Shown: positions 111-14,979 of the stretch, one piece after another
How the letters are laid out: each line of letters opens with the position of its first letter
Position numbering within the stretch: the stretch's first letter is position 1
Assembly (NCBI GenBank): GCA_903850425.1
Contig: CAINLR010000037.1
Span: forward strand, 1 to 64,000
From: an uncultured Verrucomicrobia subdivision 3 bacterium
Lineage (GTDB): Bacteria; Verrucomicrobiota; Verrucomicrobiia; Limisphaerales; UBA11358
DNA length: 64,000 nucleotides
Reading direction: 5' to 3'
Notes under the pieces: model-generated
Seen by the model: only the letters and a program-made list of their open reading frames with translations
Told to the model about the DNA's origin: nothing
Databases searched by the model: none
Made by a program: the position numbers and the translations under genes

Positions 111-168
111 TCCGCATAACTGACAACTGCGGATAATTTTTGTTATGGCGAGCTTGTCATAACAAAAA
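111..168. other. Two adjacent inverted repeats
   Basis: TCCGCA at 111-116 pairs with TGCGGA at 128-133. Just beyond it, an 11-base arm (TTTTTGTTATG, 137-147) pairs perfectly with 158-168 across a 10-base loop. The structure lies next to the IS66 remnant and may be an insertion-sequence end or a terminator. No function can be assigned from sequence alone. Confidence 0.5.
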
Positions 169-169
169 G

Positions 170-379
170 AATTTTTTGTTCATCGGGCACCCCGAGGCCG
201 GGCAGCGCAGTGCAGTGATCTACTCCGTGCTGGGCAGTTGCCGCCGCCACGGCATCAATCCAGCCGAATATCTCCAGGACGTTTTTGAACGCCTGCCCAA
301 GGCGAAGACCTCTGAAGTGCCAGCCCTCACGCCGGCGGCCTGGGCCAAAGCCAAACGCGCCGCCGGTCAATCCGCTTAG
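170..379 (+). pseudogene. IS66-family transposase, C-terminal remnant
   Basis: The frame reads NFLFIGHPEAGQRSAVIYS and then SCRRHGINPAEYL, the well-known C-terminal element of IS66 transposases (the segment after the DDE catalytic core). Only about 65 residues remain and the catalytic core is absent, so this is a dead fragment. It ends in AWAKAKRAAGQSA followed by a stop. It sits next to an IS4-type remnant on the other strand, so several elements have landed at the distal end of the RHS tip array. Confidence 0.75.
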
Positions 380-419
380 TCAAATCCGCCGTCAGCTTTC
401 GTGCCACTCAACCCGGGCA

Positions 420-570
420 GTTCACCGACGGTTTACGTTCGATCTGCCAGCGCAGTCGATAAATGCCGGCGACCACCACGGCGGGGATTTCCAGATGGTT
501 CGTCAGGAAGATCAAATCGCGTCCCGTCTCCGCATCGAAGTAATGCACTTTCCGCAAAGGCCAAGGAAAG
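420..570 (-). pseudogene. IS4-type transposase remnant
   Basis: On the minus strand the frame contains LRKVHYFDAETGRDLIFLTN and then IYRLRWQIE. This is the conserved C-terminal half of an IS4-family DDE transposase, including the glutamate in the 'Y-x-x-RW-x-I/V-E' signature. About 45 residues survive. Downstream of the glutamate the reading switches to unrelated sequence. The fragment also interrupts the C-terminus of the neighbouring RHS tip, which now runs into it. Confidence 0.7.
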
Positions 571-592
571 GCTGCGCGCGAGCGCGCGAGGG

Positions 593-964
593 TCATAATT
601 GAGGATCCATTTTTTGACTTTCTTGTTCCTGGCTGCAAGGTTTTCGCCCAGATCCGACTCCCGGGTTGGGCGGCGGGCCGTTGCCATTCCACACCGGTGT
701 GCCATGATTGACTCCGGTCGGCCCGGTCGGGAACTTGCTTGGCGCTTGGATACCCGCTGCAACATCCCAGCCGAACGCATCAAAATCTCCCATTGGATTG
801 TTCGCGGTGTATTGGTAAAGGTTGATTGCCCCATCTTCTTGTATCGGATCCCGATTCAACCACCGTTGCGTGCCGGGGTCGTAGAAGGCGCTAGCGTTGC
901 ACATGCCGAGCCAATAGGTTAGCACGGCCAAGACAATAACCATGGAATATACTTTCGTTTTCAT
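593..964 (-). pseudogene. RHS tip 6: signal peptide plus RHS-core end, truncated
   Basis: A 123-residue product. It starts with MKTKVYSMVIVLAVL, a Lys-containing n-region followed by a hydrophobic core ending in N-A-S-A, a plausible Sec signal peptide. It passes directly into [17 protein letters not shown], the closing motif of RHS cores, and NNPMGDFDAFG, matching the core/tip junction. The variable domain is short and Gly/Pro-rich, and its last residues are probably read from foreign sequence next to the IS4 remnant. It is the last member of the array, and no partner gene follows. I call it a truncated tip. Confidence 0.7.
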
Positions 965-1030
965 TTTGTTTTGTGCGCTATCGCCATGTAGGTGTTGTTG
1001 AGGTTCATCGTTACGTTCATCACCGGAATC
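965..1030 (-). other. RHS-core scar upstream of tip 6
   Basis: The segment just upstream of the tip-6 start resembles pieces of the RHS core at 7070-7180. One piece is like the 'tatcgccgtgtaagtgttatt' region and another like 'gttcaccgtcacgttc', with the sequence between them lost. It looks like debris of an RHS core that once stood in front of the tip. The match is short and made by eye. Confidence 0.45.
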
Positions 1031-1081
1031 ATCGGCAGCTCCGGGTTACGATTAATATTCACCTAAAATGTCATTTGCTGA

Positions 1082-1465
1082 TCAGGGCTGTGCTTTGCGA
1101 ATCAAGTTTGATCGCATATACACTTCTGCATATGCGATGCTTTTCTTCTGGTCTTCTGACCACAAATAATTGGTTTGCAAATTGATTCTAGATAGATCGG
1201 TTTCAAGCTCTTTAAAGAGAACTCTTTTAACAGTTTCAGAATCGCCACGATCAAGCCTTTGAAGCAGTGCCGTATATGTTACAGCATTTGCAACCAATTG
1301 CCAGCGGTATAGATCAACATAACCTGATTGTTCCGCAGATCGTGCTAGATCGTGCTTTTGCAATAGCATTTGATTTTGAACCTGCCGATGCGCGCGCCAA
1401 AAGCCAACAGCGCAGGCAAAGGCAAATATCAGCAAACTTAACCATAGAAAGTTTCGTATAATCAT
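1082..1465 (-). CDS. Small membrane-anchored protein, partner of tip 5
   Basis: 127 residues starting MIIRNFLWLSLLIFAF, a single N-terminal hydrophobic segment (about residues 4-22) that would anchor it in the inner membrane. A charged, probably helical remainder follows. I chose this ATG because it overlaps the stop codon of tip 5 (ATGA at 1462-1465), indicating translational coupling. No known family is recognised. By position it is a candidate cognate (immunity-like) protein for tip 5. That is inference from gene order only. Confidence 0.65.
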   Translation of the reverse strand: MIIRNFLWLSLLIFAFACAVGFWRAHRQVQNQMLLQKHDLARSAEQSGYVDLYRWQLVANAVTYTALLQRLDRGDSETVKRVLFKELETDLSRINLQTNYLWSEDQKKSIAYAEVYMRSNLIRKAQP

Positions 1466-2076
1466 GGGCTGGGAGGTGGTGTTGGGGCAACCGGTGGGGC
1501 ATTGCCACCGAAAATGCATGCTGATCGTTGAGCCGTGCAGTTATCTACACACGACTGCAATGGCCCGCTTTGGCCATAATCAATGGCGCAGCACGCCGTG
1601 CATGATTCATAGGACATTTCACAAGCTACTTGCCAAGTCTCTGTTCCTTTTAGAGCCTTGTCAGGACTCTTCCAGCAATGTTTAGGGTCGTCCAATGGAA
1701 GCGGACATGAAGGATTAGACTTAGGCGGTTGTGGTGGCTTTTGTGGTGGCTTTGGCGAAGGCTTTGGCGGCAGGCAATAAATAGGTTTACCATTGATATA
1801 ACCACATATTTTGCCGGGAGATTGGACTGGGAAAGGGTTGTTTCGATTGCCTGTTCCACCGCCGTATATGTCTATGTCACATCCCCATATATCCACATAG
1901 TTTATGGGGTCATTTTTGGTCAGTTCATAAAGATTCATACCACCATCTTCCTGAATTGGATCCCTATTCAGCCATCGTTGAGTGCCAGGGTCGTAGAAGG
2001 CACTGCCGTTGCACAAGCCGAGCCAAAAGGTCAGCAAGGACAGCAGAACAACCATGGCGTATGAGTGTGTTTTCAT
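1462..2076 (-). CDS. RHS tip 5: exported RHS-core end with Cys/Pro-rich domain
   Basis: 204 residues. Signal-peptide-like start (MKTHSYAMVVLLSLL, ending N-G-S-A), then [17 protein letters not shown] and NDPINYVDIWG, the end of the RHS core including the conserved Asp and Gly of the junction. The variable domain (about residues 75-204) has a Pro/Lys-rich stretch (KPSPKPPQKPPQPPK) followed by many cysteines (CPLP, HCW, ACEMSYESCTACC, SCVDNC, SAC). This suggests a disulphide-stabilised exported domain. It does not resemble any toxin domain I know. The stop overlaps the next start (ATGA). Confidence 0.75.
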   Translation of the reverse strand: MKTHSYAMVVLLSLLTFWLGLCNGSAFYDPGTQRWLNRDPIQEDGGMNLYELTKNDPINYVDIWGCDIDIYGGGTGNRNNPFPVQSPGKICGYINGKPIYCLPPKPSPKPPQKPPQPPKSNPSCPLPLDDPKHCWKSPDKALKGTETWQVACEMSYESCTACCAIDYGQSGPLQSCVDNCTAQRSACIFGGNAPPVAPTPPPSP

Positions 2077-2139
2077 ATTGTATTAAATAAAATTAAAGGT
2101 CTAATCTTACCTGCGCTCATTCAGCTTACCCCTCCCGCC

Positions 2140-2355
2140 TTAATCGCAATCATCTGAACTGGATGAATTCCCACTCTTTCGTCCGTCATACCTACCGAAA
2201 GAGTATGCAGCCAGAGTGATTGGAATGACAATATTAAGGTCGTCATAAATAACCTGACGACCGAAGCCATACTGTGTGGCAAACATTGTGGCTATGACAA
2301 CTAAACATAGTCGCAAGAACTGAAACACGTCCCGGCTTGTAATGGGTGCTTTCAT
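2140..2355 (-). CDS. 71-residue membrane protein, partner of tip 4
   Basis: A very small protein with two hydrophobic stretches (FLRLCLVVIATMFATQYGF and LNIVIPITLAAYSFG) and a polar Ser/Asp tail, predicted as a two-segment inner-membrane protein. It starts 27 bases after the stop of tip 4 on the same strand. Its position in the alternating series marks it as a candidate partner of tip 4. No homologue is recognised. Confidence 0.55.
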   Translation of the reverse strand: MKAPITSRDVFQFLRLCLVVIATMFATQYGFGRQVIYDDLNIVIPITLAAYSFGRYDGRKSGNSSSSDDCD

Positions 2356-2382
2356 AAAGAAAGTTCGCTTTAATTCAACGCA

Positions 2383-2880
2383 TCACGGCACAGGAAATGA
2401 CGGCGGGCTACTCCCACCACCGTCACCCACATGGTATGGCGGGTCGGGGCGGTTGCCTGCTTCGCAGCCCGCATAAGCAGCAAGAGCCGCATCCTGGGCA
2501 ACTATTGCTTTGGCCCCGCAGCCGGCGGCCCCGGCTAAAAGACCCGGCAGCGTTAGTGGTGGCCGCGGGCGGGCGATGCCTTGTAGGCCTCCATAAATCC
2601 CATAAGCCCATGCCATGCAAGTTTTATAGTCACTATTTATTTTATCTTCGGCGGCTCGTAGCTGATTGTCACAGGCTACACAAAACCCGCCAATATCAAC
2701 TTCTGTAATAGGGCTATCTTCCACGAATGAATACAGATCATTGCCTCCATTTTCTTCAATTGGATCCCTATTCAACCATCGTTGCGTGCCAGGGTCGTAG
2801 AAGGCACTGGCGTTGCACAAGCCGAGCCAATGGGTCAGCAAGGCCAGAACCATAACAATGGAATAGGCTTTCGTTTTCAT
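2383..2880 (-). CDS. RHS tip 4: exported RHS-core end with short variable domain
   Basis: 165 residues. It begins [15 protein letters not shown], a signal peptide ending N-A-S-A, followed by [17 protein letters not shown] and [11 protein letters not shown]. The variable part (about residues 65-165) begins [19 protein letters not shown], contains a hydrophobic Gly/Ala/Cys-rich centre ([17 protein letters not shown]) and ends in a Gly/Pro-rich tail. The hydrophobic centre could insert in a membrane, but this is speculative. No Shine-Dalgarno is visible before this start, unlike tip 2. Confidence 0.7.
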
Positions 2881-3028
2881 TTTGTGTCGTGCGCTATCGC
2901 GTATAGAGTTAATGCTCAGTTCACCGACGGTTTACAGTAAGCCTGACTTTTGTCTGCACCAATATTTTAACAAACAAATTCATCTATTTTGTTATTTGCA
3001 TTTTGGTTCCACTCTCTTTACGCAACAT

Positions 3029-3406
3029 CTAAGCTCCAAGAGCCTTTTTTGCAGGAGGAACTTTTACCAAAAAATCATAATCTATACAGTAGGGCTTAAA
3101 GCAAAATAATAATGTGATACGGCATTGGGTCAACCTGTCACGAATATGCAAGTGAGGAAACTTCTCTTTTGGGAAAAAGTCCTCCAACGATTGATTCCTT
3201 TCCAGTATTTCGTCTGGCAGTAAAAGAAGCAACTGAAGCAGTGCAGTTGTTAATCTCAAATCTGTCGACTGATTTAGTTCGTTAAGCACAATACCTAAAC
3301 TAACTTTTGAGCCACATTTCAGTTCTTCGAGAACATGCCTGAATGCCCACCTAAATAGCGGTTTACACCACCATATCCTCAGCAATCGAATGCAAATAAC
3401 AATCAT
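3029..3406 (-). CDS. Unknown small protein, partner of tip 3
   Basis: 125 residues, basic and hydrophobic at the N-terminus (MIVICIRLLRIWWCKPLFRW), with Leu-rich helical segments in the middle (TTALLQLLLLLPDEIL). The gene starts 20 bases after the tip-3 stop, on the same strand. The DNA is visibly AT-richer than the RHS core at 6-8 kb, as are the other tip/partner segments. No family is recognised. Its place in the tip/partner alternation is the only clue to function. Confidence 0.5.
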   Translation of the reverse strand: MIVICIRLLRIWWCKPLFRWAFRHVLEELKCGSKVSLGIVLNELNQSTDLRLTTALLQLLLLLPDEILERNQSLEDFFPKEKFPHLHIRDRLTQCRITLLFCFKPYCIDYDFLVKVPPAKKALGA

Positions 3407-3426
3407 TTTATTTTATGTGCCTATGA

Positions 3427-4014
3427 TTAATAAACATGCCCCGGACCATATTGCGTTGGATCTTGCCATACTGGAAAAACCAAACCAGCAACTGCTCCGA
3501 CGACCTCTGCTGGAACACAAAGACAGGCACGCCCCGCCGTCGCCGCACCATCCAAAAACGCCCCCCATTTTTGCAAGTTAGTAATTTGTGAGGCGATAGC
3601 CTTCGCTTGGCTCACGGATTGATTTCTCCATTGCTTTGCGAGGATGTAAAGTTCGTAGGTAGCGATGCTTTGATACCCAAGGCTTTTTGGGTCCTTGTAT
3701 TCATGATATAATAAAGTTGCTTGCAGTTCAAATTCAGCCGCTTGGTTAACTAATTGATTATATTGTGCCTGTAATGCGGCTATCTGATTCAAGACATCAC
3801 TCAGGCTGAAGCAATTGCGACCTTCGGGGTCTACAAATTGCAGAGGATTATTTTCTGCAAATTGAAATAAATTAATTCCACCAGACTCTTGAATATTATC
3901 TCGATTCAGCCACCGTTGCGTGCCAGGGTCGTAGAAGGCGCTGGCGTTGCACAGGCCAAGCCAATAGATCAGCAAGGCCAGAACAATAACAATGGAATAG
4001 GCTTTCGTTTTCAT
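3427..4014 (-). CDS. RHS tip 3: exported RHS-core end with helical domain
   Basis: 195 residues from the ATG of [15 protein letters not shown]. An in-frame extension upstream to 4080 exists but reads through leader and scar sequence. After the signal peptide come [17 protein letters not shown] and NNPLQFVDPEG. The variable domain is mostly helical and Gln/Ala-rich (LNQIAALQAQYNQLVNQA), ending in a small hydrophobic/Cys segment (ACLCVPAEVVGAVAGLVFPV). The stretch around residues 80-170 could form a coiled coil. Function unknown. Confidence 0.72.
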   Translation of the reverse strand: MKTKAYSIVIVLALLIYWLGLCNASAFYDPGTQRWLNRDNIQESGGINLFQFAENNPLQFVDPEGRNCFSLSDVLNQIAALQAQYNQLVNQAAEFELQATLLYHEYKDPKSLGYQSIATYELYILAKQWRNQSVSQAKAIASQITNLQKWGAFLDGAATAGRACLCVPAEVVGAVAGLVFPVWQDPTQYGPGHVY

Positions 4015-4095
4015 TTTGTGTCGTGCGCTATCGCGGTTTAAGTGTTGTTGCCGCTCACCCACGCTGGTTCGTGCTGGCAAACGTCACATCCGGTT
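4015..4095 (-). other. RHS-core scar upstream of tip 3
   Basis: Bases 4030-4090 (for example ggctggttcgtgctggcaaa, followed by cgtcacatccg) align by eye with the RHS core at 7075-7125 of the truncated main RHS gene. The copy stops abruptly near 4092. It is read here as what remains of an RHS core after deletion. Confidence 0.6.
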
Positions 4096-4119
4096 AGTTG
4101 CCAATCACATAAGCCATTA

Positions 4120-4599
4120 CTATTTTAAACTTATTGGCACCCAGCACAGATTAGTCCGAACATAATTGACATGCTTTATCTCGTCTATCATGAAATCCCA
4201 CCCTCCCGCACCATTGCTGTCAATATACGAACAAACTGGCGTTCCCATCTTATCTCTAAAAAACAACATTCTTCTTAAACTTGAGCCATTTGTGCTAACT
4301 TTCGTTGTCATTATCTGATACCCATTCTCAAATAATGTTTCTTCAAATGCATCGGCATCAGTTTTGCATCGGTAGAAGATATTTTTATTGCCATTAGCAA
4401 TTAATATTATTGGTTGGGAGTTTGTTACAGAAAGGTCGGCATAGATTTTTAGCTGAAGAGGATCATATTTCGCTACTAGTGAAAGTCCAAGCGGAGCATC
4501 GTCATTGTCTGAGATTGTTTTAACATGGCTGTGCAGTCCGCCGCATCCAAATGTGCCGATAGCGATGCTGACTATAAAAATAATGTTTATTGTTTTCAT
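4120..4599 (-). CDS. Putative lipoprotein, partner of tip 2
   Basis: 159 residues. The N-terminus MKTINIIFIVSIAIGTFGC has a Lys, a hydrophobic stretch and a lipobox-like Gly-Thr-Phe-Gly-Cys, predicting a lipid-anchored envelope protein. The rest is a soluble domain with Cys residues (YRCKTDADAF, VCSYIDSNG, NLCWVP). It begins 12 bases after the stop of tip 2, with AGGA about 10 bases before the ATG. No family is recognised. An envelope location would fit a partner that meets its tip outside the cytoplasm. Confidence 0.65.
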   Translation of the reverse strand: MKTINIIFIVSIAIGTFGCGGLHSHVKTISDNDDAPLGLSLVAKYDPLQLKIYADLSVTNSQPIILIANGNKNIFYRCKTDADAFEETLFENGYQIMTTKVSTNGSSLRRMLFFRDKMGTPVCSYIDSNGAGGWDFMIDEIKHVNYVRTNLCWVPISLK

Positions 4600-4611
4600 T
4601 TTCTAACAATC

Positions 4612-5178
4612 CTATTTCGTGCCTTTACATTTTGCGTCAAAAATGCTGAGAAGAGCGGTGTTCTTTGCACCCCAGTTTGCGGCACAATCTTTTTCCATTT
4701 GCGCTCCTTTTGCGGCATTACCACTTAGTTCGCACTTAAAAGCCTCAAGCATGCAGTTTTTTTGCTGCGTTTGTGTATAGGCCATCACTAGCCCAAGCGT
4801 CTTGCATGAGTCTCCAAAAATCTGAAATAGCGATGTCATTTCACCACCAAAGTCGACGCCTGCTTTGACAGCGTCCCATCCGCCATGTTTTTCAATCCAT
4901 TCCCAAGCTTTATCCAAGAGGCCGGGAGCATCAGTTTTTAGCCCAAATAAATCGATCCATTGTATCGGATTGTTTGCAGCAAAAAGAAACCGGTTTGAGT
5001 CTTCGGCAGTAGATAATTTATAATTATGAGGCAGTCTCTCAGTTACACCCTCACAAATCGGATCCCGATTCAACCACCGCTGCGCACCGGGGTCGTAGAA
5101 GGCGCTGGCGTTGCACAGGCCAAGCCAATAGATCAGCAAGGCCAGAACAATAACAATGGAATAGGCTTTCGTTTTCAT
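4612..5178 (-). CDS. RHS tip 2: exported RHS-core end with Cys-containing domain
   Basis: 188 residues from the ATG at 5178, chosen because GGAGG stands 7 bases upstream and a signal peptide ([15 protein letters not shown], ending N-A-S-A) begins here. The frame stays open upstream to 5319 through recognisable RHS-core sequence. [15 protein letters not shown] follows, then a short extension and NNPIQWIDLFG. The variable domain is helical, with five Cys (DSCKTLG, KNCMLEAFKCEL, KDCAANWG, DAKCKG). Together with the lipoprotein gene downstream it forms one tip/partner pair. Confidence 0.75.
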   Translation of the reverse strand: MKTKAYSIVIVLALLIYWLGLCNASAFYDPGAQRWLNRDPICEGVTERLPHNYKLSTAEDSNRFLFAANNPIQWIDLFGLKTDAPGLLDKAWEWIEKHGGWDAVKAGVDFGGEMTSLFQIFGDSCKTLGLVMAYTQTQQKNCMLEAFKCELSGNAAKGAQMEKDCAANWGAKNTALLSIFDAKCKGTK

Positions 5179-5182
5179 TTTG

Positions 5183-5490
5183 TTTCCTCCGCTATCGCGG
5201 ATAGGGTTACAGTTTACCCACGGCTGGTTCGTGCTGGCAAACGTCACATCGGCATACAACACCGCATTGCTCGTGTTCACCGTCACGTTCGTCACCGGAC
5301 GCCTCCTGCCGCCCGCCATTGGTAACTGTCATCAGTTCGTTCAAACTGTGGACATTGAACTGTTGGTCCGCTGATTCGTCGCGTTGTAATCATAGCAATA
5401 AGAATAAAAGTCCAACCCCATTACACTCATCAGTTCCGTCAGGGTCAGACGGGCTGCGGCATCATACTGATTGGTGAATTTCTTTGGCAT
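5183..5490 (-). pseudogene. Decayed RHS core upstream of tip 2
   Basis: The minus strand reads RRPVTNVTVNTSNAVLYADV and TFASTNQPWVN, nearly identical to the main RHS (6th kb gene) at 7090-7190. Further upstream it matches the NQYDA..RLTLTELM region at about 7450-7550. The intervening ~170 bases present in the main gene are missing and the frame is broken. This is a remnant of a second RHS core that once preceded tip 2. Confidence 0.75.
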
Positions 5491-5559
5491 TGCGTCAGCG
5501 AGCTATAGCTCGTTCGTCGAGTTCAACTCGTATATGAAATGTAGGCAACAGCGCGCACC

Positions 5560-5925
5560 TCATTTCTTATTATTCTGGTCGTCGTGAAGTGATCCTCCCA
5601 AATATGCAAAACTTGAAAGTATGGCGCCGACAAGAGCAAAAATGCAAGCTAGTAGTAATGCCAAATGCACATCGTTCAACCATACGAGACTACACAAAAA
5701 AAAACCCAATAAGATAAATATTCCATATGAACGTTCCAATTTACGAATCCGCTCAGGAGAAAAGGTGTTCGGGTTTGGAAATAACCACCGCAGCAAGAGA
5801 CGCAACAGAATTAAGCACATTGTCGAAACGGCCGCGATCGCGGTTCCACGTCCAGGAGATATGAACGCACAAAACAGCAACCCTGTTAATGAGAATCCAA
5901 TTAAGAATATCATTTTTGTATTCAT
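5560..5925 (-). CDS. Four-segment membrane protein, partner of the main RHS tip
   Basis: 121 residues from MNTKMIFLIGFSLTG. Four hydrophobic stretches are visible (about residues 5-23, 30-52, 69-86 and 90-111), with a charged segment containing ERIRKLERS between the second and third, and a polar HDDQNNKK tail. It starts 24 bases after the stop of the RHS gene, on the same strand. Its position makes it the likely partner of the first, hydrophobic tip. No family is recognised. Confidence 0.65.
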   Translation of the reverse strand: MNTKMIFLIGFSLTGLLFCAFISPGRGTAIAAVSTMCLILLRLLLRWLFPNPNTFSPERIRKLERSYGIFILLGFFLCSLVWLNDVHLALLLACIFALVGAILSSFAYLGGSLHDDQNNKK

Positions 5926-5949
5926 AGGACCTGTGGACAAATATTCAAT

Positions 5950-7794
5950 TTATGGGCTTTTGGAGGGCGCGCAGAGTGTTGAGTTTAGAAAGGAATCGCT
6001 TGTTATCTCCCCAATAGCCCAACCTAAGAAATTACCGATCGTGCCTCCTACCCCAGCGCCTCCCAGCCCACCCCCAAACAGGCCGCCTAATGCGTTGCCC
6101 GCCACTCCCATACAGGCCATTGCTGCGTTCCTTGCAGCATTGCGACAGTTAGCTTGGTCTGCGGCGTTGCAAGTCGGTTTAGCCAGCGAGGCAAGATTCT
6201 CAACGCAGACAGCAAGATTTAGTAATATACTTGCGACGCCTACAAATTTAAGAAGCGGATTGTTCGCATAGCGAGTAATTGTCTTTCCAACTTGTAAAAG
6301 CTTAGAGAGGTCAATCAACCCATTGGGATCCATTCTGTCAACAGGATCGTTGTTAAGATAAATGCAGAGGTTAATTGAGTCTGCTTCTTCTATGGGATCT
6401 CTATTTGGCCAGCGTTGCAAAGTAGGGTCATAAAGCCTGTAAAGATAGTAATACAATCCCGACTTGGCATTCCACTCTTTGCTTGAGAAGCGATAAGTAT
6501 TGACGTCCGCCAGCAGACCGCTTTGCGCCAAAGTATTCCCATACGGGTCGTAAAGGTATTTGGCCATCACCATCTGGCTGGCGTCAATCAACATCGTGAC
6601 GTTCCCGTTGCCATCCGCGTGGTAATAGCTATGCACCGCGTAAAACGGTGTGCCCGGCAGAGAATCCTGGCTCCGCGCCAGCAGACCGCCAATGCCGCCC
6701 GCGCCTTGCAACGTGCCGGATAGATCGTTCCCCCGGATGTATTCCACCAGCGGTTGGTCGCTGCCATTGCGTTCCATCACTACCAGGTTGCCATCGTAAA
6801 TGAAGCGCACCTCATTGGTCTGGGTCCAAGCACTGCCGCTCCAGGCAAACTCCTTGAAAATGCGTCGGCGCATCTTACCATCATAGCTGAATTCAGACTT
6901 CCAGCTATTCGTCACCGTCACGCGGATCAACTGGTTCTCATCGTCGTAATCAAAGCCGCGCCAGCCATCGCTCAACAGATTTCCGTTCAAATCATAGGTG
7001 TAGCTGTTCGTCCCCTGAAGATTAACCGTGGCGGTGTTCGTGGCCCGCTGGCCCCAAATGTCCTTGGCTATCGCCGTGTAAGTGTTATTGCCGTTTACCC
7101 ACGGCTGGTTTGTGCTGGCAAAGCTCACGTCCGCATACAGCACCGCATTGCTCGTGTTCACCGTCACGTTCGTCACCGGCCGGCTCGTGCCGCCCGCCAC
7201 CGTCAAGCGTCCACCGTTGGTCACGGTCGTCAGTTCGTTCAAGCTGTTGACATTGAACCGCTGCAACAGTGCATGGTTCGTCCGGTAATTCAGGTTGCCC
7301 GCCGCGTCATACGCGTAGCCAAACTGTTCCTGCCAACGGTTGGTCACCCCGCCCGCTTCTTTGCCAACGGCCGTCTGCAATTCCCCAATGTTGTCATAGG
7401 TGTAATTAACATAATCGCCCGCCGTCCGCACCACGTTGGTCCGTTGATTCGCCGCGTTGTAACTATAGCTATAAGAATCCAAGTCGGACCCCAATGAATT
7501 CATCAGCTCCGTCAGGGTCAACCGGGCGACGGCATCATACTGATTGGTGATCACCGCCCCGTTGGGGAGGGTTAAAGCAACCACCCGCTGCAATTGCGCC
7601 GGATCATAGGCGTAATCAAACTCGCCCGCCGGTGAAGTGATGCTCGTCAACCGCCGCGCGGCATCGTAGCCGTAGCGCTGGATCCATGGCGCGGAAGCCA
7701 GACTCAGGCTCATTCTTAAGCGATTGGCGTAGGTGTAGCTCACGGTATCATTTGGCCACAGGCCCCCTTCGTTCAACAACTGGCCGGCAGCGCT
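5950..7794 (-). pseudogene. RHS/YD-repeat protein, N-terminus missing
   Basis: The open frame (609 residues from a TTG at 7779) begins inside an RHS core, reading AAGQLLNEGGLWPNDTVSYT directly after a stop at 7795-7797. There is no signal peptide or N-terminal domain, so the gene is 5'-truncated. YD repeats follow (RYGYDAARRLTS, YDPYGNTLAQSG), then the core end YRLYDPTLQRWPNRDPIEE and NNDPVDRMDPNGL at about residues 440-485. The last ~125 residues are a hydrophobic, Gly-rich tip (GNALGGLFGGGLGGAGVGG) with several Cys. RHS cores normally form a shell enclosing the tip. This one can no longer be exported by its own N-terminus. Confidence 0.8.
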
Positions 7795-7797
7795 TCA

Positions 7798-8384
7798 AAG
7801 ATAATTCCCCTTATACGCCCATTCGAGGATTAAGTCAATAGGCCGACTTAACTATTGTAAGCATTAAAGCATGTATTACTAATACGGAATTGAATCACAA
7901 GCAACGCTTCCGACCCACGAGCTGTTGAAGTAATGCCGCCGGCGCTCGGCGAGGCGAGGATTTTGAGGTTGGCGATTTTGTGAAGTTCTTGCTTTTGACG
8001 ACTCACCCATCCCCACCATTACCGTTCAAACCAATCCTGATCAATCCGCACCGGCCCAAGGCCGCGCGGCTCACCGGCACCTAATCCGGCCGCCGGCGTC
8101 ATAACACTACGACGCTATTTCGGCCGAAAGCCGGGGCAACGGCACAATCCCGGCCTTACGATGCCAGTGCGGCAAGCCCACGGAGCTGCGGTCGCTTACG
8201 ATGCCAAGGTGGTGAGAAATCCTCCGGCCACTTGAAAATCCGAAAATGAACCCACCACGTCACAGCCTTACGATGAGAGCGTGGCTATTCGGCCAAGAAT
8301 TACGATGCGAGTGCGGCCCAACTGTCAAAAACCTTACGATGCCAGTTCGGCAATTTTTACGATGCCAAAAAAGTTCGTAACACC
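7798..8384. other. Non-coding gap with short repeats
   Basis: No gene is seen between the truncated RHS gene and the end of the giant RHS gene. The left half (7800-8050) shows nothing recognisable. The right half holds the short repeats listed separately. Confidence 0.6.
8105..8368. repeat. Cluster of ~18-bp TTACGATGCCAGTGCGGC-like repeats
   Basis: Six copies of a TTACGATG-type unit start near 8156, 8195, 8268, 8300, 8334 and 8357, with a weaker CTACGACGC version near 8107. Several continue as CCAGTGCGGC, CGAGTGCGGC or CCAGTTCGGC. Spacing is irregular (about 24 to 73 bases), so it is neither a simple tandem array nor CRISPR-like. The repeats lie just 3' of the giant RHS gene. Role unknown. 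Confidence 0.6.
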
Positions 8385-11300
8385 TCAACCTTTCAGTCCC
8401 AAGTTGAACAGGCATTGTCTTTTAAGCTGCAATACCGGGGAGTTTGGCCAATAGCCGCGTGGCGGCCAGGTGCGAGTGCCGCCGGGACAGATTGAACGGT
8501 CCTGGGTCGGGACATCGCCCGTTTCGAAATAGATTTTCAGAATGCTGCGCGGCTCGATCGAAAAAACGCCACCGCCACCGCCGCTCCACGGGTTGTTACC
8601 ACCGCCGGGAGCCGCCAGACTGGCTTCCCGCCATTCAATCATTTCCGTCGTCCTTTTCAGCCCCGTGCATTTGGCCGCGGAGGTGACAGCGCTGCCACTC
8701 AATCCCAACATCGTCCGCAACGGGCGACCGCTTTGCGATTCAAAATAACCGCCGCCATCGTCGTTCTGCAAACCCGTCTCCGCGTCCAGGCGGAGGCCGC
8801 CCCAGCAATAGGGATTGCCCACGGCGGACGACGTGGCGCTGGTCGGAAAACCGTCGCTGGTGAGGAACGTCACCGCGCCGTAATCGTCGCCGTCGTAACG
8901 CTCGACGACCGCGCCGTTCGCGCCGGTGAGCGCAAGCGTGTTGCCCTGATCGTCGGTGTGGACGAAATAATCCTGCGTGCCCTGGCGCATGCCCACCAGC
9001 GCGCAATCCTGTAGGACGTAACTGGCCGCCACCGCACCGTTGACACGCTCCTCAATCGCGCAGGTGCCGTCGTAGCAATATTGCCGGGTGCTGGGCGGCA
9101 GGCCGCCGGCGGAAACCGTCTTGGAAACCCGCCGGCCCAGCGCATCATAAACATAGGTGGACGTTGTCACCTGCGCGGTTCCGCCGCTGAAATCAAGCGA
9201 CTGCACCTGCACCAAGCGGTCAGCGTAATCATACGCATAGGTCACCGGCCCGGCCGCCGAACTGCGGCTCACGAGGTTGCCATTGGCGTCGTAGGCACGC
9301 GCCTCGCACGGCGTGGTGGTGTAGCGGTTCATAAAGAGATCAAACGGTGCCAGCGCAGTGTTGTTCATGGTGTAATCGCCCGAGCAGGCGGCCGCGCCGG
9401 TGACGTTCGTGCGGTTGCCCATTCGGTCGAATCCGTAGGTCGTGTTGCGGAGCAGCGTTGTTCCGTCCAGCACGGCTGACTGCACCAACTGATCCACTGC
9501 GTCATAATTAAAAGCCATGGCATTCGTGTGGCCGCCGGCACCGGGAATGGCCACGGTGCGCGTGGTTTTATTCTGCTTCTGATCCCAGGTGGCTTTGCAG
9601 CCGCTCAACAGGATCGAACCATTGGCCCGGGTGTGGCGAACCTGGCTGACCTGGCCGAAGCCGTAATCGCCCGCCGCGTTGGGCGTGCCGACCTGGCCGT
9701 CATAACCGACCTGGGTGCGCACGCCGTTGCCGCACGTTTCCTGGGACAAACGCGAGCCGGTGTAATCAAAGGTGGCCAGCGGTTTGCCGGATTCGGCGAT
9801 GCCGGTGCAGCGGCTGGCGGCATCGTAAGCGTAGGTCAACACGCGGCCGCCGGGATAGGTGAGCGACAGCCGGTTGCCCAGCGCGTCGCAAGTGGAACTG
9901 GTGGTGAGGCCGTTGAGCGTTTCGCTGACGCAGTTGTCGAGCGAATCGTAAGCGAACGAACCACTGCAATCGTGATCGGTCTCGCCCGTCAGCCGGTCAC
10001 AACCGTCGTAACTGAAGGTCTCCACATAAACCGCACCGCCACCACCTCCGCCGCCGGTGCCACCACCGCCAGCCGACGCCATTGTGATGTCACGGCGAAC
10101 GAGGCGGTCATTCAAATCGTAGGTGCAGACGCTGACCGTGCCGTTGGGATCGGTCGCCTGCATCAGGTTGCTGCGCGGGCTCCAGACCATTTGCTGATGC
10201 GTGCCATCGGGACGGGTGACGAGGGTGCAGTTGCCCAGCGTGTCGTAGGCATAGCTGGTGGTGTTCCCGTTGGCGTCCGTGGCGCTCGCGCAGCGCAAGT
10301 TGGAATCGTAAGTCGCCGAACTGCTGCGGAGCACGGTGGCCGGCTGGAGGGACGAGGAGCCGGCGTAGCTGACACTGGTCAGGCAATCGCCCATGAAATC
10401 ATAGGCATAAGTGGTGTCATTGCCCAGCGCATCGGTGGCGCGGACAACATGACCGAGCGAATCGTAGGCGCAACTGCTGGTGTTGCCCGCGCTGTCGGTG
10501 CAACTGACGAGCCGGTCCAATGCGTCATAAGCATAGGTGCAGGCGAAGACCTGCGCCGGCCCGCCGGTAGAGGACACGTTGGTTTCCGTGACAGAGGTGA
10601 CGTTGCCACTCGCGTCGCGGGCAACGACAATGCCAGCGATGACCCCCGCGCTGAGGGCGGTGGAGCGTCCGGCCGTATCGTAGCCGCAGGTGGTCACCAA
10701 GCCGAGATCGTCGGTGATGCTGGTGCAAGCGCCGTTCGGCGCGTAGGCAAAGGTCGTGGTGGCCTCGCCGTCGCCGACGGGCGACTGGGTGCTACCGAAG
10801 TGCAGGGCGTGAACTTTGTAGAGCCGGTTCAGGCCGTCGTATTCGCGGCGCGACTCGGCGAGGCGAACATTGCCGGCGGAACCGGGCACGTCATTCGCCT
10901 CGCCGAACGTGCGGGCGACCCGGAGATTGTCGTTCGCGTCGTAGAAACAAACTGTCTGGTTGCCCATCGGGTCGGTGGCGACCGACGGACGGTCGAAGCC
11001 GTCGAAGGCCATTTGCTCCACATAGAGTTCGACGTTGAAGCGCTTGATCTTTCCGCTCGCGGTGTAATCGAATTGTTTAGTCTGAGCCAGGGTGGAACCG
11101 GGCGCAGTGGTGGCATGAAACAACAGACCGCGTTCGTCATAGGCATAGGTCACCGCCTGGTGCGGGTCGGCGCCGGAAACGGCGTCGGGGCCGAGCGCCT
11201 GCACGCACTGGTTGTTGGCGTCATAGACGTAGCGGTTGGTGATGACATGGCTGGAATCCACGGCCAGCGCACATTCCGTCAGGCGTTGCAGCGCGTCGTA

Positions 11301-14300
11301 GCGGAAGTTGTCCGCGCAGGTGCCCTGCGGGTTGCCAGCCGGATCGAGCACCACGGAGGAACGCTGCACGAGTTGGTCATTGGCATCATAGAAGTAATCC
11401 ACTTTGATTTTGCAAAAGCACAGGCTGACCGTGGCCGAACTGGATTCCACTGGCTGATCGAGCGAATTGTAGGCGAACAACCGGTCATTGCCGCGCGGAT
11501 CCACATAGCGGGTCAGATTGCCGCGCGCGTCGTATTCAAACGCGGAAGTGAGCGCGAGACCGCCCGCGCCGGCATCAATAACACATTGCGTCATCTGCCC
11601 CTGCGACCAACTGAAGGTGTCCACGCGGCTGCGGCCATTGGCGTCCGGCGCGTTGGTGATGGCGGTCAACTGGCCGTGGGTGTCGTAACTAAAATCCTCA
11701 TATTTCACGCCGCCAATATGTTTCCTTTGTATGTGCTGCACATTTCCATTCGGATCGTAAATGCCGGTCGTCACGTTGCCGCGCGGGTCGGTGGCGGCGA
11801 CGCAGTAATTGTAAGCGACCGACTCGTCATTGAAATCAAAGTCGCCTTGGCTGGGCCACAAATCTTCAAACATGACCCGATTGGACAAATTGAAGTCGCC
11901 TTGGGTTTTGGTGGTGGCCTTCAATTTCTCGCGCCCGAACGTTACGGCGTCCGCAATGCCGGTGTTCCCGCCGGTGCCTTTGGTGTTGATGGCATGATAA
12001 GCTGCCGCTTCGCCTGCGTCGTTGTGGAAGATGACGCTGATGGATCGCCGATCTACTTTGCCATCCAGCACCGCCTTCCGCCATTTATACCACTCGTGCG
12101 AGCACTCGGAAGACCCGAAGCGCGGGTCGTAATCAAAGTGCCACGAGCGGTCGGTAACGTCCGCCACCCCATCGCCGTCCAAGTCCACCGGGCTGCTGGC
12201 GAGTTCGCGCACTACGCGGCAGTCAGCGCGCTTGCGGGCGGGCGTGGCCGGATCAAAATCGGATTGATACACGAACTTGAGATTGGGAAATTCAAGGTGG
12301 CCGGGCTCCCGGACGGAGGTGCATAGCGAATCATTATTCCAGGTGCATTGCGTCTCGAAATAATCCGGGTCGCTGTCGCGCAGCTTGCCGGAAAGCTGAG
12401 TCAGTGCGTTGGTGACCGGCGTGCCGGGCGTGGCGCGGCCGGTGAATTCGCGTTCCGCCACGCAGCGGCCGCGCGCGTCGAAGTAACATTCCGTGACGTT
12501 GCCGACCGGATCATTGACGGTGCATTTGAAGCTGGCCGGCAGCACCGGCACATGCGGGACGCCGGTAAAACTGCAAACGGTCGGCGCGTTGGCGCCACAT
12601 TGCGAGGTGTTGACGTGGAGGTAGGCGGGGGACGAAGCATTCAATTCGTAGGTGAATTGCACATTGGTCTGGCCCAGCGCGTCCACGCACGCGATGAGCA
12701 AATGGTTCTGCCGGTCCAGCGCGAGCGGATAGCCTTTCGTGTAGGTGTAGCGGGTGATCTTGCCGGTGGGAAAATCATTGCCGTTCGGCGTGCCGGTGAC
12801 GGGCGGCGACGTGACGGATTTCAAATCGCCCGCGCCGCCCGGATCGGCGGGCAGACCTTGATAATACTTATAGTTCACGCTGCGCCCGGTGAAATCCGTG
12901 ACGGACGCAAGCTGCCCGGACGTGTTGTAACTCACCGTGTTTGTGCGGCCCAAATCATCCACGACTTGCGCGAGCCGTCCGCTCGTGTCATAACCGAGCG
13001 TCATCGTGCTGCCGTTGCGCGTGATGACCTGATGCAGCTTGCCCGCCGCCGCCGTGCCGTCGAACGGATTAAACACCCAGCGTCCGGTGTCGGCAAAAGT
13101 GAGAGTGAAAGTGTTGTTGCTGAGCGTGCCTTCGCGGAAAAATTCCGGGCAGGTGTAAGTGCCGTTGGTGCCGAGCTTGAACGTGTCCGCCCGGCCCGTG
13201 CCCTCACGCACCACGCACGCACCGCTGACGGGAGGTTGCACCGACACATCGTAGGAAAACGTCCAGCCATTCGGTGCGCCGGTGCGACCGATGCGGGAGT
13301 TGTAAGTGCGCGCCCAGACGAAATCGAGTTCGCGCCCGGGGATGGCGAGGTCCACCACTTTTTGTTGCACTTCGCCGGAGAAGGCCGAGCCCCAACACCA
13401 AGGCCGACCATCAACCACGCCGCCGCCAGCCGTGCGGGCCAGCTTGACATTCACCGCGTTGAGACCTTTTTTACCTTCCGCCACCTCGAACCCGGCCGCG
13501 AGGCTGTCGTCAAATAGCTTGAGGCCCTTTTGGTTGATGCCCTTGCCGGTATCCGGCGGGGCGCTGAACCCGGCCGTGAGGCTGTCGTCGAATAGTTTGA
13601 TTCCCTTTTCCTGGATGCCCTTGCCGGTTTCCGGCGGACGCGCGAAAGCCGAGCTACTATCAACTTTTCTCGTTATGGAAAACGGATTGAAGGTGATTTT
13701 GCCCGCGCCCGCCCCGCTGCTCTGGCTGCCGATGTTTAATACCTGCTCAATATCGAAACTGAAATTGTCGCTTGGACTGTTTTTCCATTTTTCTTTGCCC
13801 TTCTGCGCGGGCCGCATGGCTGGACTGGCCGGTGGTTCCGCCGCCGGCGGGCCTTGCAATACCAGTTCCGGATTCGCCAGCGGGTCGGCGCAGACGACGG
13901 TGAAAGACGAAACCACCAGACCGCCAACCAGAAGGCTGACCTGATAATTTCCGGTCGCGCCCGGCGTGAATACCGGCTTCACTAGCGTGGAGGAGCTTTG
14001 GTAAACCGTGCCGGTCTGCGTCACGCCGTTGATTTGCAACTCGGCGTTGGTGGGGAAACATTGGCCCAGCACATAAAGATCCACCGCCACACCCGGCGGG
14101 ACGATGGCCGGCTCCACGGAAGAAATCTGCGGCTGCGGCAGGATGAGCCGGTAAAACGTGGCCGGCGGCCTGAGCAGGCCGGTGGGATCCGTGGCCGTCA
14201 CGGCAAACTGGTAGCTGCCGGCCCGGTCGGGGGTGAACACCGCATCCAGCGTGGTCCACGGCGCGCCGGCCCCGAGGTCGGTGGCGCTTTGCACGAGATA

Positions 14301-14504
14301 GGTCGAGTTGGAAGTGGCGTCCCAGTCGAGCCGGTAGGTGGGCAACGCTTCCGTGTTCGCGCCGGTGTTCGCGAGGCGCAGCGCAGCGGCGGAGGACGGC
14401 GATCCGCCGCCGGTCAGGACGATGAGGGCGGCCAGAGCCAGCACCGGCAAGCCGGCGGAGAGGGTTGGCGCAGAATGATAATGGGAGGCGGGTTTAGTTT
14501 TCAT
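8385..14504 (-). CDS. Giant secreted RHS/YD-repeat protein (2039 aa)
   Basis: Start chosen at MKTKPASHYHSAPTLSAG, which opens a signal peptide with a hydrophobic stretch (LPVLALAALIVL). An open frame continues upstream to 14597. Next come an LDW...LVQS...FYRL module (about residues 55-120), an IPT/TIG-like Ig fold (about 125-205), a 26-residue direct repeat (about 290-340), a DUF6531-type start of the RHS region (GRELDFVWARTYNSRIG) and dozens of YD repeats (about 430-1870). The repeats contain unusually many Cys (VTTCGYDTAGR, NTSSCAYDSLG). The core closes with GLRLDAETGLQNDDGGGYFE, without the usual RW(L)xRDP. The C-terminal ~100 residues (GGGGGVFSIEPRSILKIYF) are unrecognised. No partner gene follows directly. 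Confidence 0.88.
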   Translation of the reverse strand: MKTKPASHYHSAPTLSAGLPVLALAALIVLTGGGSPSSAAALRLANTGANTEALPTYRLDWDATSNSTYLVQSATDLGAGAPWTTLDAVFTPDRAGSYQFAVTATDPTGLLRPPATFYRLILPQPQISSVEPAIVPPGVAVDLYVLGQCFPTNAELQINGVTQTGTVYQSSSTLVKPVFTPGATGNYQVSLLVGGLVVSSFTVVCADPLANPELVLQGPPAAEPPASPAMRPAQKGKEKWKNSPSDNFSFDIEQVLNIGSQSSGAGAGKITFNPFSITRKVDSSSAFARPPETGKGIQEKGIKLFDDSLTAGFSAPPDTGKGINQKGLKLFDDSLAAGFEVAEGKKGLNAVNVKLARTAGGGVVDGRPWCWGSAFSGEVQQKVVDLAIPGRELDFVWARTYNSRIGRTGAPNGWTFSYDVSVQPPVSGACVVREGTGRADTFKLGTNGTYTCPEFFREGTLSNNTFTLTFADTGRWVFNPFDGTAAAGKLHQVITRNGSTMTLGYDTSGRLAQVVDDLGRTNTVSYNTSGQLASVTDFTGRSVNYKYYQGLPADPGGAGDLKSVTSPPVTGTPNGNDFPTGKITRYTYTKGYPLALDRQNHLLIACVDALGQTNVQFTYELNASSPAYLHVNTSQCGANAPTVCSFTGVPHVPVLPASFKCTVNDPVGNVTECYFDARGRCVAEREFTGRATPGTPVTNALTQLSGKLRDSDPDYFETQCTWNNDSLCTSVREPGHLEFPNLKFVYQSDFDPATPARKRADCRVVRELASSPVDLDGDGVADVTDRSWHFDYDPRFGSSECSHEWYKWRKAVLDGKVDRRSISVIFHNDAGEAAAYHAINTKGTGGNTGIADAVTFGREKLKATTKTQGDFNLSNRVMFEDLWPSQGDFDFNDESVAYNYCVAATDPRGNVTTGIYDPNGNVQHIQRKHIGGVKYEDFSYDTHGQLTAITNAPDANGRSRVDTFSWSQGQMTQCVIDAGAGGLALTSAFEYDARGNLTRYVDPRGNDRLFAYNSLDQPVESSSATVSLCFCKIKVDYFYDANDQLVQRSSVVLDPAGNPQGTCADNFRYDALQRLTECALAVDSSHVITNRYVYDANNQCVQALGPDAVSGADPHQAVTYAYDERGLLFHATTAPGSTLAQTKQFDYTASGKIKRFNVELYVEQMAFDGFDRPSVATDPMGNQTVCFYDANDNLRVARTFGEANDVPGSAGNVRLAESRREYDGLNRLYKVHALHFGSTQSPVGDGEATTTFAYAPNGACTSITDDLGLVTTCGYDTAGRSTALSAGVIAGIVVARDASGNVTSVTETNVSSTGGPAQVFACTYAYDALDRLVSCTDSAGNTSSCAYDSLGHVVRATDALGNDTTYAYDFMGDCLTSVSYAGSSSLQPATVLRSSSATYDSNLRCASATDANGNTTSYAYDTLGNCTLVTRPDGTHQQMVWSPRSNLMQATDPNGTVSVCTYDLNDRLVRRDITMASAGGGGTGGGGGGGAVYVETFSYDGCDRLTGETDHDCSGSFAYDSLDNCVSETLNGLTTSSTCDALGNRLSLTYPGGRVLTYAYDAASRCTGIAESGKPLATFDYTGSRLSQETCGNGVRTQVGYDGQVGTPNAAGDYGFGQVSQVRHTRANGSILLSGCKATWDQKQNKTTRTVAIPGAGGHTNAMAFNYDAVDQLVQSAVLDGTTLLRNTTYGFDRMGNRTNVTGAAACSGDYTMNNTALAPFDLFMNRYTTTPCEARAYDANGNLVSRSSAAGPVTYAYDYADRLVQVQSLDFSGGTAQVTTSTYVYDALGRRVSKTVSAGGLPPSTRQYCYDGTCAIEERVNGAVAASYVLQDCALVGMRQGTQDYFVHTDDQGNTLALTGANGAVVERYDGDDYGAVTFLTSDGFPTSATSSAVGNPYCWGGLRLDAETGLQNDDGGGYFESQSGRPLRTMLGLSGSAVTSAAKCTGLKRTTEMIEWREASLAAPGGGNNPWSGGGGGVFSIEPRSILKIYFETGDVPTQDRSICPGGTRTWPPRGYWPNSPVLQLKRQCLFNLGLKG
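13489..13637 (-). repeat. 78-bp direct repeat inside the giant RHS gene
   Basis: Two copies (13489-13559 and 13567-13637) with a 78-base period encode the 26-residue unit PPDTGKGINQKGLKLFDDSL and its variant PPETGKGIQEKGIKLFDDSL. They lie between the Ig-like domain and the RHS region, probably as a linker. Confidence 0.85.
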
Positions 14505-14979
14505 GGGATTCAATGGGGTCGCAACACGCTTGTAACCTGTTTGTAACATTTCAACGCTGACGCGATGATTCTGAACAATTTTCTGCAGGAATTTCATAAT
14601 AATATTAGCGGAAGGTCCTTGCGGACGGCCACCATGGCCGGCGCCCTAGTGGCGCGGGCGGGGTGATGGATCGGAGCCATGACACAAGGCGGACAATGCG
14701 TGTTTTCATGGTCGGGTCATGATTCAGTTGGCAAATATTTCACCGAGTTGAAACTGGCGACGCCAGAATTTTAGGCTCCGGCCGCGAGCCAGAAATGCTG
14801 GAGATGTGAGAAGCCTTCCATGTTGTCCGGCTAATAGCAACAATAATCGAAACTATGTTGTCATGGGGAGGACAAAAAATGGGGAGTGAGAAAAAGCGAC
14901 AATGAGGAGGCCAGACGATCGGCGGGCAGGAAGCGGGCATGGCTGAAAAAACTCAAAAGAACCTGGCGGTGGGGTAATG
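14505..14979. other. Intergenic region upstream of the giant RHS gene
   Basis: No convincing gene, RNA or promoter was found. It presumably contains the promoter of the RHS gene (read leftwards), but no clear -35/-10 pair stands out. Confidence 0.5.

What the first reader, a model, noticed from the sequence alone, without database searches (positions are those of the whole stretch)
593..7779. Alternating array of six RHS tips and five small partner genes
On the minus strand, the order from a truncated RHS gene is RHS+tip, partner, tip, partner, tip, partner, tip, partner, tip, partner, tip. All five downstream tips keep the same N-terminus and RHS-core end but have unrelated C-terminal domains, and every small gene differs. 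This is the layout of a polymorphic effector/immunity reservoir. Orphan Rhs tips are known in Enterobacteria, but those are silent modules without their own start and export signal. None of the tip domains matches a toxin I know.
Basis: partly seen in the sequence, partly recalled or inferred. Interest (0 to 1): 0.85.

Follow-up and report, generated by a model that had tools for sequence, protein, structure and literature searches.

The report
Array of secreted toxin-immunity gene pairs
A Verrucomicrobiota bacterium carries a row of small genes that probably encode different exported toxins, each followed by its own protective partner; this is a stripped-down, self-exporting form of a known bacterial weapon in which most partners appear to sit in the cell envelope.

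Summary
Window 593-7779 (minus strand) has a 5'-truncated RHS gene with tip and partner, then five small ORFs sharing a signal peptide plus the last ~40 residues of the RHS core (TIGR03696 positions 33-76), with different C-termini, alternating with partners. Corrections: the last tip is cut by transposase remnants and has no partner; the contig ends there. A separate assembly repeats 3,370 nt at 99.97%. I found 20 such 'SP-tips' in 9 genomes or bins, so this is a gene family. At RHS ends in relatives, 14 of 21 similar tip pairs have similar downstream genes (permuted mean 0.045), including SP-tips against RHS-borne tips. A few relatives' tips and partners match known toxin and immunity families. 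Partners are mostly predicted membrane proteins or lipoproteins (61 of 87; control 21 of 73). Seven of nine SP-tip genomes have a transglutaminase-like gene beside an SP-tip; this genome has none detected. The window's own tips have no convincing homologues, so their pairing is inferred; toxicity is untested. Best reading: Sec-exported polymorphic toxin/immunity cassettes freed from the RHS cage. New variant of a known kind.

The parts
5950..7779 (-). 5'-truncated RHS gene, 609 aa, TTG start, no signal peptide seen; carries tip T0 (5953-6318), rich in glycine and GxxxG
   Evidence: tip boundary
5560..5925 (-). Partner P0, about 121 aa, four predicted TM segments
5207..5477 (-). RHS-core remnant just upstream of SP-tip1: 5207-5340 and 5362-5477 are each 84% identical to the RHS gene at 7088-7221 and 7435-7550
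4612..5178 (-). SP-tip1: signal peptide + RHS end + tip T1 (4615-4941); C-terminal helical hairpin predicted
   Evidence: AF2 mean pLDDT 65.9, no Foldseek match at E<=0.001
4120..4599 (-). Partner P1, 159 aa, predicted lipoprotein (lipobox Cys19)
   Evidence: AF2 unusable at pLDDT 38.6; one homologue in G232 without an adjacent tip
3427..4014 (-). SP-tip2 with tip T2 (3430-3819)
3029..3406 (-). Partner P2, 125 aa, no segment above the TM threshold; probably related to the partner of an RHS tip on contig C130 of the same genome
2383..2880 (-). SP-tip3 with tip T3 (2386-2685)
2140..2355 (-). Partner P3, 71 aa, one predicted TM segment
1462..2076 (-). SP-tip4 with tip T4 (1465-1881), proline-rich linker, 12 Cys in 139 aa
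1082..1465 (-). Partner P4, hydrophobic N-terminus (TM anchor or lipobox); ATGA overlap with SP-tip4
593..964 (-). SP-tip5, cut off by transposase remnants; no partner
411..692 (-). Transposase remnant overlapping the end of SP-tip5 (DDE_Tnp_1, below the curated cut-off)
143..379 (+). IS66 C-terminal element remnant

Best explanation
Each SP-tip plus the gene after it is a polymorphic toxin/immunity cassette. The toxin has lost the large RHS cage. A Sec signal peptide is joined directly to the last ~40 residues of the RHS core, followed by a variable effector domain. The product should be exported, probably cleaved after ASA, and folded outside the cytoplasm, where its many cysteines could form disulphides. 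The partner, usually a predicted membrane protein or lipoprotein, should protect the producer's own envelope. Cassettes (RHS end + tip + partner) are exchanged with RHS genes and sit behind a shared leader, so a cell can carry several at once. Shown: architecture, recurrence, tip-partner co-variation in relatives, envelope bias of partners, constraint on SP and RHS end. Inferred: export, toxicity, immunity, route to the target.
For: Five SP-tips in the window and 20 in 9 genomes or bins (excluding one unlike hit, L093), with alternating arrays in G015 and L162. The pool of tips and partners at RHS ends contains known toxin and immunity families. Co-variation: 147 unique tips, 21 similar tip pairs, 14 with similar partners, permuted mean 0.045, 0 of 5000 shuffles reached 14. 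SP-tip L160#1 against L087 (RHS end behind another leader): tips 54%, partners 69% identical; against the RHS-borne L141: 38% and 26%. SP-tip L134#2 against the RHS-borne L154: 58.5% and 40%. Envelope partners 61 of 87 against 21 of 73 control genes, p=2.6e-7 (control); 16 SP-tip partners that could be assigned: 13 envelope. pN/pS 0.42 in SP and 0.12 in RHS end among the window copies; 0.39 and 0.10 in eight others. Cys 3.4% in 12 SP-tips elsewhere and 2.4% in all 147 tips, against 1.3% in long ORFs of the window.
Against: No SP-tip or partner of the window matches a Pfam family above its cut-off, and no tip has a convincing homologue in 320 genomes, so pairing in this array is inferred from relatives. 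T0 had one weak phmmer match (L078, E 2.5e-4) whose partner is not similar. Seven of 21 similar tip pairs lack similar partners; two earlier versions gave 3 of 17 and 3 of 19 (19 of 2000 shuffles reached 3). P2 and L160#1's partner look soluble, G049's did not pass the rules, and L134#1 has no clear partner. A P1 homologue lies without a tip. SP-tip5 is broken. Signal peptides and TM segments were called by hydropathy rules, not by a trained predictor. No toxicity data.
Confidence: 0.72

Rival explanations
1. Silent reservoir: the tips are spare cassettes for recombination into a full RHS gene, as proposed for CDI/Rhs orphans, and are not used as separate exported proteins.
For: They lie downstream of an RHS gene, carry an RHS-end arm, and RHS-core remnants precede SP-tip1 and the first G015 SP-tip (by eye). 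Tip-partner modules occur in both SP-tip and RHS contexts.
Against: Each has its own ATG and signal peptide; apparent purifying constraint on the signal peptide (pN/pS about 0.4), which an RHS recombinant would discard; the local RHS gene is itself 5'-truncated; SP-tips occur with no other RHS end in the stretch fetched for G028 (L049) and none seen by eye in L134 and L160.
Confidence: 0.15
2. Variable surface or structural modules: exported disulphide-rich proteins with a membrane-bound assembly partner and no toxicity.
For: No toxin match for any window SP-tip; some tips are Cys- or Pro-rich; some partners look pilin-like (G032: by eye from a recalled motif).
Against: RHS ends in relatives carry nuclease toxin domains and CdiI_2/Imm11 partners, and SP-tip cassettes are shared with RHS genes.
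Confidence: 0.1
3. Recombination debris: a decaying RHS locus with ORFs left by chance.
For: RHS-core remnants, transposase remnants and a truncated last tip; broken SP-tips elsewhere (L109; L181).
Against: Four intact SP-tip-partner pairs, low pN/pS, the same architecture in eight other genomes or bins, and tight tip-partner spacing.
Confidence: 0.03

Closest known systems
Orphan rhs-CT/rhsI and cdiA-CT/cdiI modules (PMC3150448, PMC7043789; passages)
   Same: Detached C-terminal tips with immunity genes, next to an RHS or CDI gene, keeping a piece of the conserved core.
   Different: Those mostly lack translation starts, or use an internal CTG in Salmonella; here each has an ATG, a signal peptide and only the last ~40 core residues.
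MafB / mafB-CT-mafI islands of Neisseria (PMC4287609; passages)
   Same: Secreted polymorphic toxins followed by CT and immunity cassettes, some CTs with their own start codon.
   Different: DUF1020 N-terminus there, RHS end here. In the passages read, the signal peptide belongs to full-length MafB and is not mentioned for the mafB-CT cassettes.
SitA/SitI lipoprotein toxins of myxobacteria (PMC5562445; passages)
   Same: Self-exported polymorphic toxins with cognate immunity genes, several per genome.
   Different: Lipobox signal, TraA-dependent transfer by outer membrane exchange, nuclease domains; SP-tips have no consistent lipobox.
Polymorphic toxin systems survey (PMC3482391; passages)
   Same: Sec route, RHS, standalone cassettes, toxin-then-immunity gene order; N-terminal transglutaminase domains in some RHS toxins.
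   Different: [quoted passage not shown] here most partners are predicted envelope proteins. Its RHS transglutaminase domains are judged inactive and are fused to the toxin; here it is a separate gene with invariant Cys and His.
Glycine-zipper toxins EsxX/TspA with membrane immunity (PMC12744356; passages)
   Same: T0 has a GxxxG-rich stretch and its partner is predicted polytopic, like ExiCD.
   Different: T7SS export in Staphylococcus; no sequence relation was tested.

Membership tests
RHS polymorphic toxins | YD-repeat cage (RHS_repeat PF05593) | tested here: not met
   SP-tips have no PF05593 match at E<=1; the truncated gene 5950-7779 does
RHS polymorphic toxins | C-terminal end of the RHS-associated core (TIGR03696) | tested here: met
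   within positions 33-76 of 76 in all five, four of five over the cut-off
RHS polymorphic toxins | PxxxxDPxGL junction | tested here: inconclusive
   PxxxxDxxG kept in all five SP-tips, full motif only in T0 (by eye, sequences)
Polymorphic toxin/immunity cassettes | constant N-terminus, unrelated C-termini | tested here: met
Polymorphic toxin/immunity cassettes | C-terminal domain and downstream gene exchanged together | tested here: met
   14 of 21 similar tip pairs in relatives; not testable for the window's own tips
Polymorphic toxin/immunity cassettes | toxicity relieved by the cognate partner | not testable with these tools
   needs expression
Orphan rhs-CT modules | no start codon or export signal of their own | tested here: not met
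   ATG plus hydrophobic signal in five of five
MafB | DUF1020 N-terminus | tested here: not met
   no Pfam match in four of the five SP-tips and only weak unrelated ones in SP-tip2
SitA | lipobox (type II signal) | tested here: inconclusive
   Window copies read LG[LM]CN[AG]SA, with Leu or Met before the Cys (poor by a recalled consensus); G015, L134, L160 and L162 lack that Cys, G049 has one. Read by eye; no predictor was run

The most novel reading that the evidence does not exclude
Limisphaerales have evolved cage-free 'mini-Rhs' weapons: RHS toxin tips re-fitted with a Sec signal so that several are exported in parallel, acting on the target's envelope, with immunity moved to the membrane and periplasm, and in most carriers a membrane-anchored transglutaminase-like enzyme that processes or attaches the shared RHS-end segment.
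Probability: 0.35. Interest if true: 0.75.

Novelty: new variant of a known kind. Interest (0 to 1): 0.6.

Why it matters
If right, the RHS cage can be dispensed with and the toxin tip re-routed to Sec export, which makes it testable what the cage is needed for. It also adds a large set of predicted envelope-acting toxins with membrane or lipoprotein immunity, a class that the 2012 survey found to be rare, in a phylum for which four searches returned few papers (5, 1, 2 and 3).

Tried and rejected
Structure: AF2 without an alignment gave mean pLDDT 38.6 for P1 (not used) and 65.9 for T1; Foldseek against PDB gave nothing at E<=0.001. Promoter and terminator scans matched shuffles (13 against 11.1; 9 against 9.0), so no operon claim is made from them.

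T2 against the C130 tip of the same genome: the partners are probably related (z 7.2, 0 of 500 shuffles; phmmer E 3e-5; BLASTP of the pair alone only E 0.005), but the tips only marginally (z 2.4-2.7; 16 and 8 of 500 shuffles reach the score; BLASTP E 0.61), so this is not counted as co-variation. Weak phmmer matches of window sequences to the pool (T0 to L078, E 2.5e-4; P0 to the L106 partner, E 1.9e-4; another tip at E 0.004-0.006) were not supported by their partners or tips, nor by BLASTP at E<=1e-3 for the tips, and were not used. The one weak tip hit in the order search (G041, E 8e-4) lies, judged by eye, among unrelated genes and was rejected.

Transglutaminase-like gene as a required part: rejected for this genome, which has no match at E<=0.001, nor has G028. 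Among the 59 relatives, the four matches with E<1e-70 (G015, G010, G032, G049) all lie beside or within about 1 kb of an SP-tip; G006 and G027 carry shorter matches with no SP-tip seen beside them; four weaker matches (G052, G039, G057, G051) were not followed for neighbours.

Envelope count: one search gave 62 of 88, but one of these was the transposase remnant after SP-tip5; removes it (61 of 87; without the window's own genome 55 of 79, p=8e-7). Of the 103 pairs, drops 5 by score, 5 by gap, 5 by length and that one. The partner used for L051 there is probably a mis-call and counts as non-envelope. Control genes come from a crude longest-ORF caller. RHS-end classes A and B did not differ (7 of 12 against 55 of 76, p=0.33, remnant still included). 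L093 in the list was left out of the SP-tip count because its N-terminus is of a different kind. Pfam scans took 98 of 100 tips and 93 of 103 partners; I left out two tips and ten partners (long, truncated or doubtful ones). The permutation ignores relatedness among loci; three of its 14 concordant pairs come from one genome or bin each (L105/L106, L149/L149, L145/L155), and several belong to the same cluster (L087/L141/L160; L104/L112/L142/L145).
Full report
WHAT IS THERE. The window starts at the end of a contig of a 6.9-Mb genome. On the minus strand lie a 5'-truncated RHS gene with tip T0 and partner P0, then five SP-tips and four more partners. The five SP-tips share a signal peptide (MKT...LG[LM]CN[AG]SA) joined to the last ~40 residues of the RHS core. 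RHS-core remnants lie just before SP-tip1 and, read by eye, before the first SP-tip of G015, so SP-tips look like RHS genes whose middle was replaced by a signal-peptide segment. The last tip ends in transposase remnants. A separate assembly, binned as Nitrosomonadales and probably misbinned, repeats 3,370 nt at 99.97%, so the alternation is not a local assembly error.

A FAMILY, NOT A ONE-OFF. Searching relatives and named genomes gave 20 SP-tips in 9 genomes or bins: this genome 5, G015 3, G049 3 (one stops after 40 aa, one is short and lies near a contig end), L160, L134 and L162 two each, G010, G028 and G032 one each (the last interrupted). G015 and L162 show the same alternation. L134 and L160 are binned as Lentisphaeria and Anaerolineae and may be misbinned (inference).

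TIPS AND PARTNERS ARE PAIRS. I collected the gene after every RHS end found in the fetched loci. With 147 unique tips, 21 tip pairs were similar (E<1e-5, coverage 0.6), and 14 of these had similar partners; permuted mean 0.045, none of 5000 shuffles reached 14. Seven pairs did not. Two earlier, smaller versions gave 3 of 17 and 3 of 19 (19 of 2000 shuffles reached 3). Most telling, SP-tip cassettes match cassettes behind other N-termini: L160#1 and L087 (an RHS end behind a different leader) share tip (54%) and partner (69%); L160#1 and the RHS-borne L141 share them at 38% and 26%; L134#2 and the RHS-borne L154 share tip (58.5%) and a multi-TM partner (40%). So SP-tips draw on the same pool as RHS tips. 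Pool members include RNAse_A_bac, Ntox44, LHH, Col-Pyo_DNase and PT-HINT tips and CdiI_2 and Imm11 partners, one match each of 98 tips and 93 partners scanned; most members match nothing. The window's SP-tips and partners match no Pfam family above its cut-off. Over 320 genomes of the order, outside this genome, the tips gave one hit that I rejected and the partners one: a homologue of P1 in G232, interrupted and without a tip.

PARTNERS ARE MOSTLY ENVELOPE PROTEINS. By hydropathy and lipobox rules 61 of 87 partners are membrane proteins or lipoproteins, against 21 of 73 control downstream genes (p=2.6e-7); of 16 SP-tip partners that I could assign, 13. [quoted passage not shown] An exported toxin that acts in the envelope would need exactly such partners. 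Tips are Cys-rich (3.4% in 12 SP-tips elsewhere; 1.7-8.6% in the six window tips; 2.4% in all 147 tips; 1.3% in long window ORFs), which fits an oxidising compartment.

CONSTRAINT. Among the five window copies pN/pS is 0.42 in the signal peptide and 0.12 in the RHS end; eight copies from four other genomes or bins give 0.39 and 0.10. The signal-peptide DNA also has about half the synonymous divergence of the RHS end in both sets (0.27 against 0.57; 0.245 against 0.558), as if the leader were homogenised among copies while cassettes behind it differ in origin. These are sums over non-independent pairs of 26 and 17 codons (22 and 15 in the second set). Constraint on the RHS end could also be inherited from an RHS past.

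A TRANSGLUTAMINASE-LIKE COMPANION. In seven of the nine SP-tip genomes or bins a gene with weak Transglut_core2 similarity (G015 copy: 23.1 bits, cut-off 23.5, E 5.6e-5) lies beside or within about 1 kb of an SP-tip: G015, G010, G049, G032, L134, L160, L162. A Cys and a His are invariant in the seven aligned sequences. It was not found here or in G028. Three of the seven were found through the SP-tip itself, so only the four from the whole-genome search (all four matches with E<1e-70 in 59 genomes) are unbiased for linkage.

MECHANISM. Shown: architecture, recurrence, co-variation, envelope bias, constraint. Inferred: Sec export and cleavage after ASA (a lipoprotein signal is not excluded), folding in the periplasm, toxicity, protection by the partner. 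The route to another cell is unknown; the genome has two VipB (T6SS sheath) and five secretin matches, all on other contigs. T0 resembles glycine-zipper toxins with polytopic immunity (PMC12744356, passages) only by a GxxxG-rich stretch and a four-TM partner; this is a lead, not a test.

NOVELTY. Alternating toxin/immunity cassettes, standalone cassettes and cassettes with start codons are known (PMC3482391, PMC4287609, PMC3150448, PMC7043789; passages read). I saw no description of RHS-end tips with their own signal peptide in the listings of six searches of the open-access library (two searches listed 15 of 51 and 8 of 50 papers) or in the passages read. I therefore call it a new variant of a known kind.

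Noticed in passing
L048:4319-5398, L162:3284-4372, L160:235-1353, L134:1-657, L051:6888-7751, L181:3644-5425, L050:2094-3185: Transglutaminase-like gene, mostly with an N-terminal hydrophobic segment, near SP-tips in seven of nine genomes or bins; not found in the window's genome.
   Followed up: partly
L070, L080, L086, L087 (G006, G017, G031): RHS-end tips in relatives preceded by a different leader without a signal peptide (SMFTP...C.Y...G..WPxRDP), similar between several copies; L080 has five RHS ends in a row.
   Followed up: partly
L162:4372-5417: SP-tip with an HExxH-like motif (HEQGH) followed by a predicted lipoprotein; looks by eye like a metallopeptidase with an inhibitor, but no Pfam match supports it.
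   Followed up: partly
window 8148-8351: Short repeats of CTTACGATGCCAGTGCGGC between the truncated RHS gene and the 2070-aa gene; 3 matches with up to 3 mismatches against 0.01 expected.
   Followed up: partly
window 8385-14597: 2070-aa RHS-repeat gene with DUF6531 and a C-terminus without a TIGR03696 match.
   Followed up: no
window 1001-6000: GC 42-48% in the array against 50-65% in the rest of the window beyond 7 kb, as expected of imported cassettes.
   Followed up: no
L064:4917-5872 (G000:C130): A second RHS tip-partner pair in the same genome whose partner is probably related to P2.
   Followed up: yes
window 770-5178: Signal-peptide DNA has about half the synonymous divergence of the adjoining RHS end, in this genome and in others.
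   Followed up: partly
L133, L134, L160: Contigs labelled Nitrosomonadales, Lentisphaeria and Anaerolineae carry SP-tips and are probably misbinned Verrucomicrobiota (inference).
   Followed up: no
L181:2232-2870, L048:5419-5814: Some partners look by eye like pilin-like proteins with one N-terminal membrane helix.
   Followed up: no
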